Origin: a virus
Length of the DNA stretch: 64,000 bases
IMG/VR virus record: IMGVR_UViG_3300037475_000211
Location: 1-64,000 of that record
Direction: 5' to 3' (one strand)
Positions 5,331-60,144 of the stretch are shown one piece after another; position 1 is the first letter of the stretch; each line of letters starts with the position of its first letter. The notes beneath the pieces were generated by a model that saw nothing but the letters and a program-made list of their open reading frames with translations, was not told the origin of the DNA and ran no database searches. The position numbers were made by a program, and so were the translations under genes.

Positions 5331-5501
5331 ATGTATTATGTATTAGTTCAGAATGGACTTGTCTTTGAAGGAAGTTTAAATGACTTCAAAAGTAAGTTTT
5401 ATGATTATCCTTTAACTTGGACTGATGAACAAATCATTGCTCATGCCCAAAATTGGGCAGAAGAAAATGGTTGGACGTTTGAATTTAATTTATTAAACTA
5501 A
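5331..5501 (+). CDS. hypothetical protein, 56 aa
   Basis: Pattern of a beta hairpin (YYVLVQNGLVFEG) and a helix (DEQIIAHAQNWAEE) ending NGWTFEFNLLN. The end resembles that of the protein at 404. The stop overlaps the next ATG by one base. Confidence 0.6.
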   Translation: MYYVLVQNGLVFEGSLNDFKSKFYDYPLTWTDEQIIAHAQNWAEENGWTFEFNLLN

Positions 5502-5728
5502 TGTTATCTAAATTACAATCAGATACTTTACTGCTTCTGTCTAAAAGAAAAAGAAAAAATAGATTATATTTAAATTATTATAGTCATTCTTGGTGTGCTT
5601 ATAAAAATATTAATAGTAAAGTTGGCATTTGTTTTATTTGTGATAAAGAATTTATTATGTCCACTGAAGATTGGTGTGAGCACGGATTACAACATTTAAA
5701 AGAATCAAATTTATTACCTTTTATGTAA
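5501..5728 (+). CDS. C2H2-type zinc-finger protein, 75 aa
   Basis: Contains CFICDKEF followed by EHGLQH, that is C-x2-C then H-x3-H, matching the finger of the proteins at 7838-8666. The N-terminus is a basic helix (LLLLSKRKRKNRL). A nucleic-acid-binding role is inferred. The C-terminus is hydrophobic (LLPFM). Confidence 0.65.
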   Translation: MLSKLQSDTLLLLSKRKRKNRLYLNYYSHSWCAYKNINSKVGICFICDKEFIMSTEDWCEHGLQHLKESNLLPFM

Positions 5729-6702: not shown

Positions 6703-7129
6703 TAGGTTTTTAAAATTAAAAGAAAATCATCCAACACTTATTAAGTTAGAACAAATTTTTAGCTTAATGGAAGAGCTTCAAATAAGTTTTGATTTCTCTA
6801 ATGTTGGTATGAGAGTAACTGATCAAAGTCAGGAACGATTTACTTTCTTTTATATGGAAGATTTAGAGGATGATCATAGTCCTATGAGTAATCTTCCACC
6901 AACTTTTGAATATAAAGTTCTTGCAGATAATCCTAAATTTCTAGAAGAACAAGAATTGGCTACAAAGCAACGTCTTGAACAAGCTCTTAAGAAAAGAGAA
7001 GAGGCTGCCTTAAAAGAAGCTGAAGCAAAAAAGCAAGAGAAAATTCTTCATCTGGCAGAAAGAAAAGCCGCAGCTGTCTCGCTAGAAAAGCAGATTAAAG
7101 ACTTAGAAAAGGAGTTAGGAAATGAGTAG
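6695..7129 (+). CDS. coiled-coil protein, 144 aa
   Basis: N-terminal 85 residues look globular; from about residue 90 to 142 a continuous charged helix runs (KQRLEQALKKREEAALKEAE ... LEKQIKDLEKEL). It overlaps a winged-helix gene by eight bases, so the two products may act together. No family recognised. Confidence 0.7.
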   Translation: MSSRFLKLKENHPTLIKLEQIFSLMEELQISFDFSNVGMRVTDQSQERFTFFYMEDLEDDHSPMSNLPPTFEYKVLADNPKFLEEQELATKQRLEQALKKREEAALKEAEAKKQEKILHLAERKAAAVSLEKQIKDLEKELGNE

Positions 7130-7343
7130 CAATAAATCAAATTTGTTTGATCTTTCTAAAGAAGAAATTTCTGAAACGTTATCAGATATTTCTGAAGAAG
7201 AAATAACGGAAGTACTAGAATCAATGGTAGAAAAAGGTTATCTTCGTGCCTTTATTAAAGACGGTGAACGTGTTTATGAAATAACTGAAGAAGGAAAATT
7301 AGCCAGAGATCACTCTGATTCCGATCCAAAACTTAGAAACTAA
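7122..7343 (+). CDS. winged-helix DNA-binding-like protein, 73 aa
   Basis: Residues 22-62 fit a winged-helix pattern: EEEITEVLESMVEKGYLRAF (helices, with a G-Y-L turn) followed by the wing DGERVYEITEEGK. This is common to MarR/PadR-like regulators and phage repressors. It lies immediately upstream of the putative structured RNA, so a regulatory role is possible. Confidence 0.65.
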   Translation: MSSNKSNLFDLSKEEISETLSDISEEEITEVLESMVEKGYLRAFIKDGERVYEITEEGKLARDHSDSDPKLRN

Positions 7344-7349
7344 AACTTA

Positions 7350-7795
7350 ATTCAAATTCATTAATCTAAGAAAGAATTCGCTTAGAATAATGGGGTAGTT
7401 GCGCGACTACTTTTAGTATTATGAAGGGAGAGCCTTTAAGGCTTGAAGTTAAAATATTAGATTTGAACGGGTCTCAATAACCGAATAATTGAGGGCGCAG
7501 GCGGTCTGCCTTATACTAGCTCCAGTTTATGTTAGTTGTTAATCTGGTAATTAAAATAACTTCCTTAGCTCTGTCTCTATGAGCGAATATAATCTAAGAG
7601 GGCTTTCCACTATGATTAAGCCATAAAATAAAATCATAGAGGCACTGTCTCGCCATATCGACAGCAACATAATTACCTGCTTATCTGTTGTTAAATAGGT
7701 AATCCTCACCCTATAATTAATTTGCAAATATGTTAATGGGTCTGGGTTATAAGCAGGAACAATTTTATTCCCACTATATGTGAGGCTTTTTGTAT
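7350..7795 (+). ncRNA. candidate large structured RNA
   Basis: A 440-base stretch without a gene in an otherwise packed genome, full of complementary segments. Local stems: TCTAAG/CTTAGA (7365/7381), GTAGT/ACTAC (7395/7406), AGCCT/AGGCT (7431/7439), CTATGATT/AATCATAG (7610/7632). Long-range helices: GAAGTTA 7445-7451 with TAACTTC 7557-7563; CCTGCTTAT 7676-7684 with ATAAGCAGG 7749-7757; CCTCAC 7704-7709 with GTGAGG 7780-7785, the last running into a T-rich end. CGG/CCG (7468/7481) crosses CTCAAT/ATTGAG (7473/7488), a possible pseudoknot. Large ornate phage RNAs such as GOLLD and ROOL are known; membership was not established. Strand is assumed from the genes. Confidence 0.6.
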
Positions 7796-7837
7796 TTTAA
7801 AAGTAATAGTGATTATATTTCTCAAGGAGAATTAAGT

Positions 7838-8218
7838 ATGCTGCGATTGCTTGCGGCAATAAAAACTCCTTCTTTATCATTCAAAGATGGATGGGGAGAA
7901 ATAAAATCAATTCCTGATAAAGGTTTTGTTTTAAATTGTTTCATTTGTAATGATAGTTTGGAATCAAACTATGATGTTAATATGATTGTTATTCATGGTA
8001 AGTTACATTTAAATAATTTAATGAATAAATTTTCTATAGAAGAAATTCTCAAATTAGAGTCTATGGCAAACTCTAACTGTTGGTGGAAAATAATTGACCA
8101 TCAAATTGTTTGCAATATTTGTAATGTAAACATTGGTGATGTACTTTTATCAACTGATATTTTTGATAAAGTTATTCTTCATGGAAGAAGACATATTGCT
8201 TTAATTTCCTTCTCATGA
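7838..8218 (+). CDS. double C2H2-like zinc-finger protein, 126 aa
   Basis: Two fingers: NCFICNDSLE ... IHGKLH and CNICNVNIGD ... LHGRRH, each C-x2-C then H-x3-H with a conserved HG before the second histidine. Ends ALISFS. Start chosen at the ATG after AAGGAGAA; an upstream TTG in the same frame (7790) lies in the terminator-like end of the RNA candidate. First of three consecutive finger genes. Presumed nucleic-acid binding. Confidence 0.7.
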   Translation: MLRLLAAIKTPSLSFKDGWGEIKSIPDKGFVLNCFICNDSLESNYDVNMIVIHGKLHLNNLMNKFSIEEILKLESMANSNCWWKIIDHQIVCNICNVNIGDVLLSTDIFDKVILHGRRHIALISFS

Positions 8219-8436
8219 CAGATTTAAATAAAGATGAAATTGAAGTTGCATGTCAGCTTTCTTTAAGAAATAAAAATTTATCTCCAGAAGATCGTGCCGA
8301 AGTAATACAAGGGTTTTGTGGAAAATGGATAAATTCCGGTATCTTTTGTTTTATTTGTAATGATAAATTAAAACAAGATGAGCCTTTTTCTAATCATATT
8401 AGGTCTCACATAAAAAAATTCATGGTTTATATTTGA
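8215..8436 (+). CDS. C2H2-like zinc-finger protein, 73 aa
   Basis: One finger, CFICNDKLKQDEPFSNHIRSH, preceded by a helical segment starting NKDEIEVACQLSLRNK. Ends KKFMVYI. Overlaps the previous gene (ATGA). Paralogue of the genes at 5501, 7838 and 8433. Confidence 0.7.
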   Translation: MTDLNKDEIEVACQLSLRNKNLSPEDRAEVIQGFCGKWINSGIFCFICNDKLKQDEPFSNHIRSHIKKFMVYI

Positions 8437-8666
8437 AGCCTTTATCTGAAAATCAAATTTCATGTTTATTACTTTTAGCTAAAAGGTCAGGTAGTACTGA
8501 AGACCGCTGGATGTCATCTTATGATGAGTTTAAATTCAAATGTAATATTTGTAATAAAATTTTAAGTAATGATTTTATTTATGATTTTGAATATGAAGGT
8601 AATATAATGCCAGATGTTATTCTTCATGGAAGTGAACATTTAATTAGTTTAAATATTTTTATATGA
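8433..8666 (+). CDS. C2H2-like zinc-finger protein, 77 aa
   Basis: One finger, CNICNKILS ... ILHGSEH. The first codon appears to be TTG overlapping the preceding TGA; no ATG in a useful position exists. Ends SLNIFI. Tandem paralogue of the two genes before it. Confidence 0.65.
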   Translation: MKPLSENQISCLLLLAKRSGSTEDRWMSSYDEFKFKCNICNKILSNDFIYDFEYEGNIMPDVILHGSEHLISLNIFI

Positions 8667-9015: not shown

Positions 9016-9300
9016 ATGACTGAACAATCAGATTTAGAAAAAGAATTTAAAGAGTCTGCCGAAAAATATTCAAGATTAATTGCTGCTAAAGTAGCACAAG
9101 CATGTCAATTGCTTTCTGAAGCTTGTGCTATTTCAGAAGAGCATGGCATTCCTTTTGATTCCAATATATCTTTCCTTAGTCAAGGATATGTTCCAGATTC
9201 CTTTGCAACTAAATTCAAAGGATTAGATCGAGAAATAATGTATGAAGTTACTGGAGTGTATAACGAATATGAAGGTTGGCAGCATAGCCAAGTGTGTTAA
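9016..9300 (+). CDS. coiled-coil protein with terminal cysteine (family A), 94 aa
   Basis: Helical N-terminal part (LEKEFKESAEKY ... VAQACQLLSEACAISEEHGI) and a short end EGWQHSQVC. Closest paralogue is the product at 9988 (shared GYVPDSF/GYVPRSF, GVY, YEGW-H). The two copies are separated by an HNH endonuclease gene on the other strand. Function unknown. Confidence 0.75.
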   Translation: MTEQSDLEKEFKESAEKYSRLIAAKVAQACQLLSEACAISEEHGIPFDSNISFLSQGYVPDSFATKFKGLDREIMYEVTGVYNEYEGWQHSQVC

Positions 9301-9959
9301 TTAGAGTTATGTCTAATTCCAGTTACTCCTTCTAATAAATTTTGTTTAGAACTTAATGGTCTTAAGTTGTTAAGTGACCAGCATAGTTTAAAGTTATCAT
9401 CCTCCATAGATGTATATGGTAATGTTGACTGTGGTATAATATGATCTATGCTCCAAGTCCAAGTTGACTGGTCATTATCATTCCATGTTTCTCTTTTATA
9501 GGGACCATGATTTTCCCAAGTCATCCAAGTTTCAAACTTAGACTTCAAGTAAAGTTTAAATTCATCCATAGTATATGGTACAAATTTCAAAAAACTCATT
9601 TGTTTACAGCTACCATTTGATTTAAGTGCTCTTGTTACTTTAGATGATAAATATTTTCGTAATTTCCAGGCAGGATTATTTTTTCTTTTATTACGCTCTC
9701 TAATATTAGTCGAAGATTTGGTTCTTTGTTTAGATAATCTATTTTGCTCTCTTCGCTTTGCAGTAATATTTCTTTCTCTAAATAATTCTTTATTATTTTC
9801 TCTGTATAGTTTCCTTTGTTTTTTAATTGTTTCGATATTATCTTCATGATATTTTTTAGAACAAAGAATACATGTTGCTCGTCTAGCTAATTTTTTAGAG
9901 TTTATAAAATAAAAATCTTCATCAGTTTTTAAAACTTGACATTTATTACAGGTTTTCAT
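9297..9959 (-). CDS. HNH homing endonuclease, 220 aa
   Basis: N-terminal zinc finger CNKCQVLK ... CILCSKKYH, a basic middle, then a C-terminal HNH core: WSIDHIIPQSTL with NLRPLSSKQN. Antisense to all neighbours and lodged between two paralogues of family A, overlapping the end of one by four bases. Such free-standing endonucleases cut a related phage at the insertion site and spread by repair. Confidence 0.9.
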   Translation of the reverse strand: MKTCNKCQVLKTDEDFYFINSKKLARRATCILCSKKYHEDNIETIKKQRKLYRENNKELFRERNITAKRREQNRLSKQRTKSSTNIRERNKRKNNPAWKLRKYLSSKVTRALKSNGSCKQMSFLKFVPYTMDEFKLYLKSKFETWMTWENHGPYKRETWNDNDQSTWTWSIDHIIPQSTLPYTSMEDDNFKLCWSLNNLRPLSSKQNLLEGVTGIRHNSN

Positions 9960-18212: not shown

Positions 18213-18343
18213 TGCTAAGAACTATAACTGATGATAAAAATTTAGAAATTTGTATATCTGATCTTGTATCAGGAGGATATGTAATATTACATATTGTTCC
18301 AATTAAATTCTGGAAATATGCTTCCAAGCATATCCTAATCTGA
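18212..18343 (+). pseudogene. short gene probably truncated by the GIY-YIG insertion, 43 aa
   Basis: Starts on the phosphoesterase stop (TAATG) with a plausible beta/alpha start (RTITDDKNLEICISDL, GGYVILHIVPIKF). After about 30 residues it runs into the antisense 3' end of the endonuclease gene (from 18303), where the sequence turns to KYASKHILI. This suggests that the mobile gene cut off the original 3' part. Confidence 0.5.
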
Positions 18344-19028
18344 TTTTTCCAATAGTTATTGATGATACATTAAATTCTAACGCTATTTCATTATCTTTAA
18401 TATTGTTTTTAATTTTGTTTATAATTAATAAAACATCATTTTCTTTTAATTTAGCCCTTGAATTATTTTCACCTTTACTCTGTTCAGACATCTTTTTTCT
18501 TGTTTCTGTTGTTGGAATAACAGATATCCCTTTTCTTCCACGTGAAATTGCAGCGCAAGTTGCAGCAGACCGCTTTTTACCTTTACGTTGTTCCGACCAC
18601 TTTTTTCTTGTTTCACTTGTATGTTTCATGCCAATTTTAGCTTGGCTAATTTTTAATTTTGTTTCTTCTGTTTGGCGTCTGCCAAGCATATTTTTTCTAT
18701 GTTTCTCTCTTGTTTCATCAGAAACAATTTTTTTAGATAAATTTCCTCCAAGCTCTATATTGTAGCCTCGGCATTCATCTCTACTTTGTAAATATTCAAT
18801 CCAAAATATTTCTGCTTCATCAATAATATCTGACGAATATTCTGCAAATACAATAAATTCAAAATTATTTATACCATATTTTCTCATAGAACTATATAAT
18901 TTACCAGGAGCTAACCTAGAAAAACAATCATATTTATGTTGATTTTTCCTTCGTGTAGGATTTACAGTTTGTCCTATATAAATTTTATTATTTAAAATAT
19001 TTCTAAATATATAGATATAATGTGTCAT
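18303..19028 (-). CDS. GIY-YIG homing endonuclease, 241 aa
   Basis: GIY-YIG core at the start (YIYIFRNILNNKIYIGQTVN, with Arg and Glu further on: EIFWIEYLQ). Middle has NUMOD3-type repeats (EKHRKNMLGRRQTEETKLKI, ETRKKMSEQSKG). The end is a helix-turn-helix (DNEIALEFNVSSITIGKIRL). Antisense to the surroundings, like the other endonucleases here. Confidence 0.9.
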   Translation of the reverse strand: MTHYIYIFRNILNNKIYIGQTVNPTRRKNQHKYDCFSRLAPGKLYSSMRKYGINNFEFIVFAEYSSDIIDEAEIFWIEYLQSRDECRGYNIELGGNLSKKIVSDETREKHRKNMLGRRQTEETKLKISQAKIGMKHTSETRKKWSEQRKGKKRSAATCAAISRGRKGISVIPTTETRKKMSEQSKGENNSRAKLKENDVLLIINKIKNNIKDNEIALEFNVSSITIGKIRLGYAWKHISRI

Positions 19029-29730: not shown

Positions 29731-30174
29731 ATGGTAAATTTAATAGCAACAATTGGCGGACTGTTCGCAGTCTTTACATTTGTGTATTTCTTTGTGGACT
29801 GGTTACTGCAAACTCATGCTGAGGCAATGGTTAAACATAATAACTGGAAGGTTAGAGCTAGGCACTGTGTAATTTATACTGTAGGATTTATTCCTCTAAT
29901 GTGGTTAGTAAAATTTACTGCACTAGAGGTTGTGATTGGTTTGAATATTTTATTCTGGTCTCACTTTTATTTAGATACATATCACGGAGTTTATCTTTGG
30001 TGTAAATATATTAGAAAGCCTCCCGAAATTGTTAATGCAAAAGACCCTAAAGAGGGCTTCGTTGCATTTGTACAAACAACTTTAGGCAAAATATTATTAA
30101 TAGCCGTTGATCAAATTTTTCATCTACTATTTTTATTATTGATTTGTTGTTGCTTTGTTATCTCTAAAATCTAA
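29731..30174 (+). CDS. DUF3307-like membrane protein, 147 aa
   Basis: Four hydrophobic segments; the first part FVDWLLQTHAEAMVKHNNWK followed by ARHCVIYTVGFIPLMW resembles DUF3307 (F-x-x-D-x-x-L-Q, A-x-x-K, H-x-x-I-Y). Unknown function. The last 13 codons overlap the antisense HNH gene, hinting that the insertion altered its end. Confidence 0.6.
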   Translation: MVNLIATIGGLFAVFTFVYFFVDWLLQTHAEAMVKHNNWKVRARHCVIYTVGFIPLMWLVKFTALEVVIGLNILFWSHFYLDTYHGVYLWCKYIRKPPEIVNAKDPKEGFVAFVQTTLGKILLIAVDQIFHLLFLLLICCCFVISKI

Positions 30175-30714
30175 AAGAGATAAAATCATTACTTTAGTTT
30201 CTTCAACTGTAAATTTATCAGAACGAATTTGATTACAAGTAGTACAGCAAGGCAAAACATTATCAATGTGATATCCGTGACTATTGTCAATACGATCTAA
30301 TCCTCTACCAAATGAAGGTGTATTCATTTTGTCATTACAATAATAACAAGGTTTAGAGATTAAATCAGTGTATTCTTCTAATGTTAAAGAAACCTGTAAT
30401 TCATATAATTTACCTTGATTTATTAAATATTTATATCTTACATCAGGGCGTGATTTATTTTTTTGACGAGATAGTCTCAGTATTTCTTTTATCTTTAGTT
30501 TTTGTTCAGGGGTAAAATTTTTACGTCTTTGTATATCATATGCGCGCTTTGCCGCCTTCTTTTCATTTGCTTTGATTTGAATTTCTTCTGGCGTCATTTC
30601 TTTTTTATTTTTCCTTCTTTTATTATGATATCTTTCATTATCATATTGTCGAATTATTTTTAATTCCTCTGGAGTTAAATCGCTTCGTTTTTTTGAAAAA
30701 ATACTTTTTATCAT
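30136..30714 (-). CDS. HNH homing endonuclease, 192 aa
   Basis: Basic helical N-terminus (KKRSDLTPEELKIIRQYD, NKRRKNKKEMTPEE) and a C-terminal HNH core with zinc cysteines: CYYCNDKMN, LDRIDNSHGYHIDNVLPCCT, CNQIRSDKF. Antisense to its surroundings and overlapping the 3' end of a + strand gene. Confidence 0.9.
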   Translation of the reverse strand: MIKSIFSKKRSDLTPEELKIIRQYDNERYHNKRRKNKKEMTPEEIQIKANEKKAAKRAYDIQRRKNFTPEQKLKIKEILRLSRQKNKSRPDVRYKYLINQGKLYELQVSLTLEEYTDLISKPCYYCNDKMNTPSFGRGLDRIDNSHGYHIDNVLPCCTTCNQIRSDKFTVEETKVMILSLLDFRDNKATTNQ

Positions 30715-36683: not shown

Positions 36684-37421
36684 ATGAAATTTAAAGATAT
36701 TTTAAAAAATAAATGGTTTTTGGGAGTTACTTTCTTTCTAGTTTATGCAGTTTTAATTAATTGGAAATTTGCAATTATATTAATGGTATCTCTTGGCTTT
36801 CATGAAAGCGGTCATGTTTGGGCGATGAAAAGAAAAGGAATTAAAACTTCTGGGTTTTATTTCATTCCTTTTATTGGTGGGGCGGCAATTGCAGAAGAAC
36901 AATTTAAATCATTTAAGCAACAAGCTTACATTGCTATTATGGGTCCTGTTTGGGGGATGAGTTTAGCGTTTTTAACAATGATTATTGGATTTATAACTAA
37001 AAATAGTTATTGTGGAATAATAGCTTCATTGATGGCAATATTTAATCTTTTTAACTTATTACCTTTAACATTATTAGATGGAGGGCAAGTATTAAAAACT
37101 ATTGTTTTATCTGTGAATCCGTTGAAAGGATTCTACATTATTAATATAATATCTATTATAACGGCAATTATAGCATTTTTAATTTTTAAAACTCCTTTTA
37201 TTATAATATTTGCGCTGCTATCTGTTATTCAAACTAATATTGAAAAATCAAATTTTATTAAAAGTAAAGGAAGTGCTTTACTTAAAAGGCTAAATAAAAA
37301 AGAAATTATGATTGTTTCTGCACATTGGATTCTAACTACTATAGGATTAATGTTTATCTATTTCCTTAGTCAAGGATTAGTTTTTGTATTACTAGGTCAT
37401 ACTTCTATTAAGATTGATTAA
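36684..37421 (+). CDS. M50 site-2-protease-like metalloprotease, 245 aa
   Basis: HESGH at 40-44 within a hydrophobic helix (SLGFHESGHVWAM) gives the zinc motif, and LLPLTLLDGGQV supplies the second-site Asp132 of the LDG motif. Six or so membrane helices. M50 enzymes cleave substrates inside the membrane, for example anti-sigma factors or signal peptides. Unusual cargo for a phage; the target might be host envelope regulators. Full length for a minimal member. Confidence 0.85.
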   Translation: MKFKDILKNKWFLGVTFFLVYAVLINWKFAIILMVSLGFHESGHVWAMKRKGIKTSGFYFIPFIGGAAIAEEQFKSFKQQAYIAIMGPVWGMSLAFLTMIIGFITKNSYCGIIASLMAIFNLFNLLPLTLLDGGQVLKTIVLSVNPLKGFYIINIISIITAIIAFLIFKTPFIIIFALLSVIQTNIEKSNFIKSKGSALLKRLNKKEIMIVSAHWILTTIGLMFIYFLSQGLVFVLLGHTSIKID

Positions 37422-37628
37422 TTAAATTTATAGTTAAGTTATGTAATACATTACTCTCCTATAGATCCTCTCATCAGTTGTCGAGAAAAAGTTCGTTTAA
37501 TTTTATTAAATAATCATAAGCTTCATAAGTTATTTAATAAATAACTTAGTCTTGCATGATGTCGAGATAAGGGTTAGGCTACCTTAGAAATTTATAAAAT
37601 GCTTGCTGAAAATAATAAAAAGGTTTAA
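37422..37628 (+). other. 207-base intergenic region with hairpins
   Basis: No gene seen. TTATTAAATAA (37503-37513) pairs perfectly with TTATTTAATAA (37530-37540), and GTCGAGA occurs twice (about 37479 and 37562). It could be a leader RNA for the NAD gene behind it or a terminator and promoter region; no clear sigma70 promoter is visible. Confidence 0.45.
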
Positions 37629-38789
37629 ATGTCGATTCAACAATTACTAGATATTCCATTTCGAACATTCATTTATACAACAGGTTGCGGCGCTGGTATC
37701 CAAAATAAACTTTGGAAATTACCTGGATGCTCTTCGTTTTTAGCTGGCTGTGGTTTTCCATATGCTCCCGAGTTAACATCTGAAGTTATTGGATATACTC
37801 CAAGTAAGTTTGTTTCTAAAGAAACTGCTATTGAATTAGCAATGTCAGCGTATATGAAAGCATTTGATGCTAGTAAATCAGATATGAATGTAATTGGTAT
37901 TGGTTTATCTGGTTCAGTAGCATCGGCTATTGAGCATAGAGGGGATCATAGGTTGTATGTAGCAGCTGTTCATAACAAAGGTTGTGATGTTACTTACGTT
38001 AAACTATCTAAAGGTAGTGGTGCTATTAAACGAGAAGAAGATGGTGATATTTCCAATTCTTTAATTTTAAAAACTCTATATGGTGTTCTTGGTCTAGAAG
38101 ATAAGATGATGTTTAAATGGTCTTATCAAGGATCTTGTTATACTCCAGAAATTGAATTATCAGAAGAGTCTGAGTTACTTTATTCCTTAATTCAAGAACG
38201 ACCATTTTTTAAATCAGATGGCAGCAAGTGTTCTAGCCCAGAATTCTTTTCTGGAGAAGATTATTCAAATTATGTTTTTTATCCAGGTAGTTTTAATCCA
38301 CTTCACTATGGACACCTGAATGCTAAGAAGGCTGCATTTAATGCAGCGGTTCATTTAAATAATGATATAAAGGATACTATTTTTACGACTTGTGTTAATC
38401 CTCCGCATAAAAATAAACTATCTTCTGTTGAAATTTTACAAAGAATTAAGCAGATGCGCGGACAAAATTTTCTATTAACTTGGGACGATCCATATTATAC
38501 TCACAAAGCAAAGATGTTTCCAGGGAGCAATATTATTATAGGAACAGATGTTTTGTTATCGATATTTGATCCTAAATGGAATCTTGATCCAATAGAGATG
38601 CTTAATTCTTTTAAAGAAAATAGAGTTAGATTTTTAGTTCGAGGAAGACTTATCGATGGTAAGTTTATTAGTTTAGCTGATTGTAGGGCACAAATAAAAT
38701 TATTAAATGATAATAATTATTATAATTTGTTTGCTCATGTTGATGGTAGAGATGATATTTCTTCTACTGAATTAAGAAATAAAAAATGA
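37629..38789 (+). CDS. nadD: fusion of CinA/PncC-like domain and NadD-like adenylyltransferase, 386 aa
   Basis: Residues 1-170 resemble the CinA C-terminal domain, NMN deamidase (PncC): TTGCGAG, LPGCSSFLAGC, VSKETAIELAMSAY, IGIGLSGSVAS, HRGDHRLYVA. Residues 215-386 are a nicotinate/nicotinamide mononucleotide adenylyltransferase: FYPGSFNPLHYGHL with HxGH at 226-229 and the late ISSTELR (377-383). Together they could convert NMN to NaMN and then adenylate it, or adenylate NMN directly. Strong leader AAAAAGG. A rare domain pairing. Confidence 0.85.
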   Translation: MSIQQLLDIPFRTFIYTTGCGAGIQNKLWKLPGCSSFLAGCGFPYAPELTSEVIGYTPSKFVSKETAIELAMSAYMKAFDASKSDMNVIGIGLSGSVASAIEHRGDHRLYVAAVHNKGCDVTYVKLSKGSGAIKREEDGDISNSLILKTLYGVLGLEDKMMFKWSYQGSCYTPEIELSEESELLYSLIQERPFFKSDGSKCSSPEFFSGEDYSNYVFYPGSFNPLHYGHLNAKKAAFNAAVHLNNDIKDTIFTTCVNPPHKNKLSSVEILQRIKQMRGQNFLLTWDDPYYTHKAKMFPGSNIIIGTDVLLSIFDPKWNLDPIEMLNSFKENRVRFLVRGRLIDGKFISLADCRAQIKLLNDNNYYNLFAHVDGRDDISSTELRNKK

Positions 38790-39016
38790 AGTTTACTGAT
38801 GCTAATGCAAGAGACTGGTTATTTAAAACTGGCATTGAGTTAGCTAGTGATTGCTTATACGAAGATGGTGGCACACTTATTTATTATGCTAAATCTCATA
38901 AAGACAAGATAGATGAGGAGCATTTTCGTAAAATTATTAAAACTGTATTGTGGTGGGATGATGAAGACATAGATTCTGCAGTTATTGAAATTAAAAAATT
39001 AACAGCTTTTATTTGA
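38786..39016 (+). CDS. small protein with LTAFI tail, 76 aa
   Basis: Mostly helical (ANARDWLFKTGIELASDCLY, EEHFRKIIKTVLWW) and ends VIEIKKLTAFI. Differs from most tail genes in lacking a beta-rich body. Overlaps the NAD fusion gene by ATGA. Confidence 0.65.
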   Translation: MKFTDANARDWLFKTGIELASDCLYEDGGTLIYYAKSHKDKIDEEHFRKIIKTVLWWDDEDIDSAVIEIKKLTAFI

Positions 39017-57591: not shown

Positions 57592-57707
57592 GGTGAGATG
57601 GCGGAAAGGCGTACGCGGCGGGTTTATCTAAGTATATTTAGATAGACTTGCTATACTTGGAAATATACATCTAAGTATTATAGGTTCGAATCCTATTTTC
57701 ACCACCA
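57592..57707 (+). tRNA. tRNA-like gene with extended anticodon stem and variable arm
   Basis: Acceptor GGTGAGA/TTTCACC, A73, encoded CCA, D-arm GCG/CGC, and a canonical T-arm ATAGG TTCGAAT CCTAT. In place of a 5-pair anticodon stem there is a 14-pair hairpin (GCGGGTTTATCTAA with TTAGATAGACTTGC) and a 6-base loop GTATAT. A 28-base variable region with ATACTT/AAGTAT follows. ATCTAAGTAT occurs twice, which suggests an internal duplication. No anticodon can be assigned; length 116. The coding start of the next gene directly follows CCA. Confidence 0.6.
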
Positions 57708-58920: not shown

Positions 58921-59556
58921 ATGTTAACATTATCACTATGGAAAAAAGCCGAACCTCAAAGTTCATTTCAGTTTATTGGAAATAAAATTGGAGATGGGGC
59001 AGATGGTGAAGTTTTTGAGATGGCTGGTTATGAAGATAAAGTTATAAAGGTTTCTATTATTTTTGATCATGAGTTTGAAGGAGATTTAGATTTAAAATTT
59101 AAGTATGTCTCTTTATCTAGAGTATTAGATGAGTTGCAGGTAACTTGTCCAAGTATCTGCGCGTGTGTATATGAGTATGAATGCATTGGCATATTCCAGC
59201 GGGATGTATCAATTAATAATATTAAATCGCAGCAAGATTATCTCTTACATTATTATGTGATGGAAAAATGTTATAAATTGACGGAGGATGAAAAAAAATT
59301 ATTTCATACCATCCTGTCTCACGAAGATCGTAACATCGAGAAAAATTTTTCAATTGAAATGTTGCAAGAAATATTATTTGGATTATCGAAGGGGCTTGAC
59401 TTCGATAATAAAAAGGTTACATTTTTCTACAAATCTTTGATGGAATCCCCCATCAAACATTTGGATCTGCACCCTCGTAATATTATGAAAAATAAAGACG
59501 GAGATTTCAAGCTTATAGACTTTGATCAAATAAAGTTATTTCCAGGTTTTACCTGA
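58921..59556 (+). CDS. protein kinase-like protein, 211 aa
   Basis: The glycine loop GNKIGDGADGEVFE (Gly24, Gly26, Gly29), KVIKVS with Lys43, and near the end HLDLHPRNIM (Asp182, Asn187) and LIDFDQ (Asp200, replacing DFG) form the catalytic set of small kinases. The C-terminal lobe ends soon after DFD, so it is short, and its last codons run into the antisense GIY-YIG gene, perhaps a truncation. May phosphorylate host proteins or small molecules. Confidence 0.8.
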   Translation: MLTLSLWKKAEPQSSFQFIGNKIGDGADGEVFEMAGYEDKVIKVSIIFDHEFEGDLDLKFKYVSLSRVLDELQVTCPSICACVYEYECIGIFQRDVSINNIKSQQDYLLHYYVMEKCYKLTEDEKKLFHTILSHEDRNIEKNFSIEMLQEILFGLSKGLDFDNKKVTFFYKSLMESPIKHLDLHPRNIMKNKDGDFKLIDFDQIKLFPGFT

Positions 59557-60144
59557 TTTTATATAATAAATAGTAGTACTGGTTACATTAAATCTTTTAG
59601 CCAATTCAGTTATAGTACTTCCATTATTTAATTCATCTTTAATAATTTTAACGTTTTCATTGTTTAATTTGGCAAAATGACTTTTTTCTCCAGAATGTGA
59701 AATAGATTTCAGTTTTTTAGTTTCTTCAGAATCTTTTATTCCTATATGAGAGATTGACATTTTATTTTTACTTTCTTCACTAAATTTCTTTCCCCACATA
59801 GGATGATTTTTCCCGCCAGCAGAACCACCATTACCACCAGGCTTAATGTTTAAACCATTTTCAATAGATTTATATAAAATAATATATTTAATTTCGGCAT
59901 CGTAACTATCTTTTTCTATTTGAAAAGATTGAATAACTTCTAACTCAAAATTTTCAAATCCATATTTTCTCATAGATCTATATAGTTTTGTACACTCATA
60001 TTTTCCTTTGTGATTTTTAGCCAAATTAATATGAGCCTTAAATCTTTTTGTGGGATTAATAGATTTTCCAATATAAACTTTATTGTTAATTTTATTAATT
60101 ATCTTGTATACGTAAAACATTTTTTCTTGCATTTTAATATGCAA
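59536..60144 (-). CDS. GIY-YIG homing endonuclease, 202 aa
   Basis: GIY-YIG core FYVYKIINKINNKVYIGKSI at about residues 10-29, SMRKYGFENFELEVI, an acidic helix with EIKYIILYKS, then NUMOD3-like repeats (HPMWGKKFSEESKNKMSISH) and a final helix-turn-helix (GSTITELAKRFNVTSTTIYY). Antisense and overlapping the kinase-like gene by 21 bases. A nearer start at 60120 is possible. Confidence 0.9.
   Translation of the reverse strand: MHIKMQEKMFYVYKIINKINNKVYIGKSINPTKRFKAHINLAKNHKGKYECTKLYRSMRKYGFENFELEVIQSFQIEKDSYDAEIKYIILYKSIENGLNIKPGGNGGSAGGKNHPMWGKKFSEESKNKMSISHIGIKDSEETKKLKSISHSGEKSHFAKLNNENVKIIKDELNNGSTITELAKRFNVTSTTIYYIKSGKTWK

What the first reader, a model, noticed from the sequence alone, without database searches (positions are those of the whole stretch)
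7350..7795. Gene-free 440-base segment with many complementary helices: a possible new large phage RNA
It is the longest gap in a packed genome and contains at least three long-range helices, including a 9-base perfect match CCTGCTTAT 7676-7684 with ATAAGCAGG 7749-7757. It also has a possible pseudoknot at 7468-7493 and a closing helix that leads into a T-rich end at 7786. Large ornate phage RNAs (GOLLD, ROOL) are known; this one may be related or new.
Basis: partly seen in the sequence, partly recalled or inferred. Interest (0 to 1): 0.75.

Follow-up and report, generated by a model that had tools for sequence, protein, structure and literature searches.

The report
Large structured RNA of huge phages
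A stretch of about 446 bases without a gene in a huge-phage genome is almost certainly the gene of a large, elaborately folded RNA; related phages carry the same fold, it matches no catalogued RNA family, and what it does is still unknown.

Summary
The segment is real, and its interpretation as a large structured phage RNA is largely right. The gene-free stretch is 7344-7789, between an HTH-like ORF and a zinc-finger-like ORF that starts at TTG 7790. A 447.8-kb IMG/VR phage record (G002) holds a syntenic homologue, 76% identical. Between the two, 14 base pairs change on both sides and still pair, with energy z = -4.9 and 0 of 300 column shuffles reaching it. Three more distant members (G038, G040, G041) and one reduced candidate (G005) come from related phage records. 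The pair G040/G041 gives 23 doubly changed pairs, z = -8.1. All six 3' arms fold separately into the same layout, with an apical UUGCAA loop. Nothing matches among the 4,227 Rfam families, GOLLD and ROOL included. What follows the RNA differs between phages (zinc-finger ORF, tRNA-Glu, other ORFs), which argues against a cis-regulatory leader. Best reading: a new family of stand-alone large phage RNA, comparable to GOLLD/ROOL but not shown to be related. Function and oligomerisation are inferred only.

The parts
7344..7789 (+). the structured RNA segment (446 nt), from the stop of the HTH-like ORF to the start of the zinc-finger-like ORF
   Evidence: ORFs; homologue L007:1391-1820, 76% identical; conserved-structure shuffle test
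7351..7467 (+). 5' domain: P1 (7351-7358/7460-7467) closing hairpins P2 (7361-7370/7381-7390), P3 (7394-7400/7405-7411), P4 (7430-7434/7440-7444)
   Evidence: all four re-form with changed bases in G002; a P3-like hairpin is seen in all five full-length members
7468..7493 (+). pseudoknot 1: S1 CGG 7468-7470 / CCG 7481-7483; S2 CTCAAT 7473-7478 / ATTGAG 7488-7493
   Evidence: S2 and S1 complementary in five members: S1 is CGG/CCG, CGG/CTG, ATGG/CCAT, GGTT/AACC, GGG/TCC
7494..7506 (+). conserved GGCGCAGGCGGTC, nearly identical in G040 (GGCGCAGGTGGTC) and G041 (AGCGTAGGCGGTC)
7522..7554 (+). pseudoknot 2: P7a CCAG 7522-7525 / CTGG 7544-7547, the latter in the loop of hairpin P7b 7539-7543/7550-7554
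   Evidence: P7b differs completely in sequence in five members yet always pairs, with the P7a partner in its loop
7560..7664 (+). core: P8 7574-7578/7597-7601, P9 7601-7605/7618-7622, hairpin 7645-7649/7660-7664; includes the conserved run GAGCGAATATAATCTAAGAGGG
   Evidence: 83% identical between window and G002 (alignment); P9 has two double changes (GGCTT/AAGCC to GGTAT/ATACC)
7676..7757 (+). 3' arm: P12 7676-7684/7749-7757, P13 7685-7689/7694-7698, P14 7700-7705/7744-7749, distal helices, apical loop UUGCAA 7722-7727
   Evidence: same topology in the minimum-energy folds of all six homologues; z -3.6, -3.4, -2.4, -5.5, -2.5, +0.2
7755..7768 (+). conserved 3' tail AGGAACAATTTTAT (GGATCAATTTTAT-like in G038, G040 and G041)
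7780..7792 (+). GTGAGG (likely ribosome-binding site), spacer and TTG start codon of the next ORF
   Evidence: aligned with GTGAGGTTTTATG in G002; paralogue N-termini
7122..7343 (+). upstream winged-HTH-like ORF (73 aa), found immediately upstream of the RNA in G002 and G005 and near it in G040 and G041
   Evidence: (weak HTH hits)

Best explanation
7344-7789 + encodes a stand-alone, large, multi-domain structured RNA, transcribed with its neighbours and acting as RNA. It belongs to a new family found in a clade of huge phages. Shown: homologous gaps in related phages, conserved helices, two pseudoknots, a conserved 3' arm with a UUGCAA apical loop, a more variable 5' part, no coding capacity, no Rfam match. 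Inferred: that it is transcribed during infection, cut out of or terminated from the operon transcript, and works in trans as a folded RNA or RNP, probably in the manner of GOLLD/ROOL-type phage RNAs. The self-complementary UUGCAA loop is a natural candidate for a kissing contact between copies.
For: Syntenic homologue at 76% identity, similar to or higher than the flanking ORFs (58-72%). Column-shuffle tests: z = -4.9, 0/300 reach energy or number of doubly changed pairs; independent pair G040/G041 z = -8.1, 23 doubly changed pairs, 0/200. Remote members found by a sequence profile (E 1.8e-6 and 1.4e-4 in 212 kb). Same single-sequence fold of the 3' arm in six members. Helices including both pseudoknots re-form with different bases. 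The RNA is kept while the following gene changes: zinc finger, tRNA-Glu, other ORFs.
Against: No transcript data. No terminator or convincing promoter, so an independent transcript is not shown. In the window and G002 the RNA runs straight into a likely ribosome-binding site, as a leader would. Minus-strand folds also beat shuffles, so the strand rests on energy and gene direction. Only five full members. The stem choices were made by eye. The G005 member is weak (arm z = +0.2). No function is shown.
Confidence: 0.66

Rival explanations
1. A long cis-regulatory leader (riboswitch- or autoregulation-like) that controls translation of the next gene: the 3' strand GTGAGG is its ribosome-binding site and can pair upstream (7508-7515).
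For: In window and G002 the start codon follows the RNA at once and GTGAGG is conserved; CCTCAC near 7704-7709 and GCCTTATA 7508-7515 could both mask it (sequence).
Against: The gene after the RNA is not conserved: zinc-finger ORF, an unrelated ORF (G038), tRNA-Glu with no ORF start (G040, G041), an HTH nuclease-like ORF (G005). The masking helix is weak in G002 (4 of 8 pairs G-U) and has no double changes.
Confidence: 0.17
2. A regulatory or processing element tied to the upstream HTH gene: a long structured 3' UTR/operon spacer, or a target bound by the HTH protein.
For: An HTH-like ORF lies directly upstream in window, G002 and G005 and 0.7-1 kb upstream in G040 and G041.
Against: Two or three small ORFs separate HTH and RNA in G040/G041 and none was seen next to the RNA in G038. 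The HTH is less conserved than the RNA (58% vs 76% DNA identity).
Confidence: 0.1
3. A degenerate or very divergent member of a known large RNA class (GOLLD, ROOL, group I/II intron, tmRNA, RNase P).
For: Similar size range, pseudoknots, conserved 3' and variable 5' half; tRNA next to it in two members.
Against: Permissive cmscan with all 4,227 Rfam models on three members gives only chance hits. No gene is interrupted, no tRNA-like end was recognised.
Confidence: 0.05
4. Not a functional RNA: a remnant intergenic sequence with chance complementarity.
For: Single-sequence folding is only z = -1.8.
Against: Cross-species conservation and compensatory changes.
Confidence: 0.02

Closest known systems
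GOLLD RNA (Rfam; PMC12286853)
   Same: large phage/prophage RNA of unknown function, conserved 3' region with a less conserved 5' region, often near tRNA genes, pseudoknots
   Different: no covariance-model match; about 446-540 nt rather than often over 800; different conserved sequences; oligomer formation untested
ROOL RNA (PMC12286853)
   Same: large phage/prophage RNA with multiple pseudoknots; in ROOL, contacts between chains by kissing loops
   Different: no covariance-model match; abundance and multimer untested here
ICP1 orf-less ~800-nt transcript (PMC7567579)
   Same: long gene-free stretch in a lytic phage genome, likened by its authors to GOLLD/ROOL
   Different: that one has RNA-seq support; here there is none; sequences were not compared

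Membership tests
GOLLD | match to the Rfam covariance model | tested here: not met
   cmscan, permissive E-value mode, on window, G002 and G040 members: no hit up to E = 5
GOLLD | universally conserved 3' region and less conserved 5' region | tested here: met
   3' arm fold shared by six members while the 5' part varies or is missing
GOLLD | encoded near tRNA genes | tested here: inconclusive
   tRNA-Glu follows the RNA in G040 and G041, none next to it in window, G002 or G038
GOLLD | assembles into a 14-mer RNA cage | not testable with these tools
   needs cryo-EM or native gels
ROOL | match to the Rfam covariance model | tested here: not met
   no hit
ROOL | multiple pseudoknots supported by covariation | tested here: met
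   two pseudoknots complementary in five members with changed bases (strands chosen by eye)
ROOL | kissing-loop multimer, high abundance in cells | not testable with these tools
   only a conserved self-complementary UUGCAA apical loop is seen
cis-regulatory leader/riboswitch | the same gene family follows the element in its homologues | tested here: not met
   zinc-finger ORF (window, G002), other ORF (G038), tRNA-Glu (G040, G041), HTH nuclease-like ORF (G005)
group I/II intron, tmRNA, RNase P | match to the Rfam covariance models | tested here: not met
   no hit in permissive cmscan; no tmRNA by ARAGORN

The most novel reading that the evidence does not exclude
A new class of ornate phage RNA that assembles with itself into a protein-free complex, through kissing of the self-complementary UUGCAA apical loop kept in all six members, as a third independent lineage of phage RNA assemblies beside GOLLD and ROOL.
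Probability: 0.22. Interest if true: 0.85.

Novelty: new variant of a known kind. Interest (0 to 1): 0.64.

Why it matters
Large structured phage RNAs are few and their role is unknown. A further independent family, with a covariation-backed two-pseudoknot fold and members from about 180 nt (one 3' arm) to about 540 nt, gives a natural minimal construct and a test of whether large RNAs of this kind share a property such as self-assembly. It also shows that uncultured huge phages hold RNA families that Rfam lacks.

Tried and rejected
Rfam at gathering and permissive thresholds on the members: only chance hits and the neighbouring tRNAs. INPHARED phages by blastn with window, G040 and G038 RNAs: nothing real. 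Two motif scans of viral contigs found only G002 plus unrelated chance hits. A genome contigs motif scan gave two contigs that share only 21-28 bases with the RNA and are taken as chance. blastn and a covariance model built from the two close members missed the remote members; only a sequence profile found them. The R2 profile search of 49 records gave, besides the members, weak hits. The G014 one lies antisense in an ADP-ribosylglycohydrolase-like ORF and is chance; those in G003 and G044 score as noise. A further 44 records, two named huge-phage genomes among them, gave nothing. A long-range pairing GTCTCTA 7573-7579 / TAGAGGC 7637-7643, in RNAalifold's two-sequence model, was dropped for a local helix P8, because the remote members re-form P8. 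A perfect hairpin CTATGATT/AATCATAG (part of I6) is not kept in G002. The T-rich 3' end as terminator was rejected. Synteny in G005/G006 near the next conserved genes led only to other, apparently unrelated noncoding gaps.

Full report
Where it lies. The window is part of an IMG/VR virus record of 67,329 bases. Its relatives are 406-473-kb phage records, so it is probably a piece of a huge phage. A 447,763-base record (G002) is collinear with most of the window.

The observation. The gene-free stretch runs from 7344 to 7789. Upstream is a 73-residue ORF with weak winged-HTH similarity. Downstream is a small zinc-finger-like ORF (CxxC...H...H units). Its true start is most likely TTG 7790. That codon aligns with the ATG of the G002 gene, GTGAGG stands four bases upstream in both, and paralogue N-termini extend upstream of ATG 7838. 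The T-run at 7787-7791 is therefore spacer and start codon. All quoted complementary stretches exist. By itself the sequence is only mildly more structured than shuffles (z = -1.8 on +, -1.6 on -), so the claim needed homologues.

First homologue. G002 carries the segment at 38481-38913 (+), between homologues of the same neighbours. DNA identity is 76% for the whole RNA and 83% for the core, against 58% for the HTH ORF and 67.5% and 72% for two nearby ORFs. RNAalifold on the pair gives 81 pairs, 14 changed on both sides and kept. In 300 column shuffles that keep identity and gap pattern, none reached the energy (z = -4.9) or the number of doubly changed pairs (mean 7, maximum 13). The minus strand is weaker (-36.0 against -50.6 kcal/mol; z = -3.1; 19 of 300 reach its count).

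Remote homologues. Motif scans, blastn and a two-sequence covariance model found nothing beyond G002. An alignment of the nearby DUF7275 protein brought in 13 loci. A nucleotide profile of the two RNAs then matched L172 (record G038, E = 1.8e-6) and L175 (G040, E = 1.4e-4) in 212 kb. L176 (G041), in the same gene order as L175, has the same sequence blocks. A five-member sequence profile (R2) searched over 49 related records recovered G002, G038, G040 and G041 strongly, as it must, and gave a weak hit in G005. That G005 hit sits directly downstream of an HTH-like ORF with a similar C-terminus; it is a reduced, about 180-nt candidate.

Independent test. G040 and G041 RNAs are 70.5% identical. 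RNAalifold gives 124 pairs, 23 doubly changed, z = -8.1, 0 of 200 shuffles. Here the minus strand scores almost as well (z = -7.6, with 28 doubly changed pairs), so strand is inferred from energy, the direction of flanking genes and the following tRNA-Glu.

Anatomy. From 5' to 3': a domain closed by P1 with hairpins P2-P4; pseudoknot 1; the near-invariant GGCGCAGGYGGTC; pseudoknot 2, in which the loop of P7b pairs with a CCRG stretch upstream; a core with P8, P9 and long conserved unpaired runs; and the 3' arm (P12, P13, P14 and distal helices) ending in a loop with UUGCAA, followed by a conserved CAATTTTAT-like tail. Complementarity of the listed strands was checked in each member. The stems were picked by eye, so one search is descriptive. 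Folded alone, the 3' arms of all six members take a similar layout; five have z between -2.4 and -5.5, G005 has +0.2.

What it does. Function cannot be read from the sequence. A stand-alone RNA is favoured, because the RNA stays while what follows it changes: zinc-finger ORF in window and G002, another ORF in G038, tRNA-Glu in G040 and G041, an HTH nuclease-like ORF in G005. A leader of the following gene is the main rival, because in window and G002 the RNA touches the ribosome-binding site. GOLLD and ROOL are phage/prophage RNAs of unknown function, often near tRNA genes, which assemble into cages through kissing loops and A-minor contacts (PMC12286853). The present family resembles them in size class, pseudoknots and, like GOLLD, a conserved 3' half, but matches neither model. 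Self-assembly through UUGCAA is a testable inference, not a result.

Limits. Five full members and one doubtful one. MAFFT alignments, not structural ones. No transcript evidence. The collections searched may leave out the nearest records.

Noticed in passing
window 57592-57704 (+): A tRNA-like gene (Rfam tRNA, 35 bits, ends ...CACCACCA) with what looks like a hairpin insertion (TATCTAAGTATATTTAGATA) in the anticodon loop; ARAGORN does not call it.
   Followed up: partly
window 37362-37688: Another noncoding stretch, 86% identical over 73 bases with G002 66030-66346.
   Followed up: no
G005 50250-49401 (-) and G006 322951-323850: A conserved noncoding segment of about 500 bases in two sister huge phages, ending in a tRNA-like sequence.
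   Followed up: partly
G005 69300-68801 (-) and G006 307601-308200: A second conserved noncoding segment, 69% identical over 173 bases, ending in a T-arm-like TTGACGGTTCGAATCCGTGG.
   Followed up: no
G005 85283, 135383, 444273; G006 63528, 300161, 386290: A dispersed noncoding repeat of about 50 bases, up to 100% identical between copies.
   Followed up: no
window 7494-7506: GCGCAGGCGGTC and its variants in the family look like the conserved 16S rRNA stretch near E. coli position 577; recalled from memory, not tested, possibly chance.
   Followed up: no
window 5501-5728, 7790-8666: A family of short paralogous zinc-finger-like ORFs (CxxC...H...H with similar N- and C-terminal ends).
   Followed up: partly
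window 9297-9959, 18303-19028, 30136-30714, 59536-60144 (-): Minus-strand ORFs in an otherwise + strand region that look like HNH/GIY-YIG homing endonucleases (seen, not searched).
   Followed up: no
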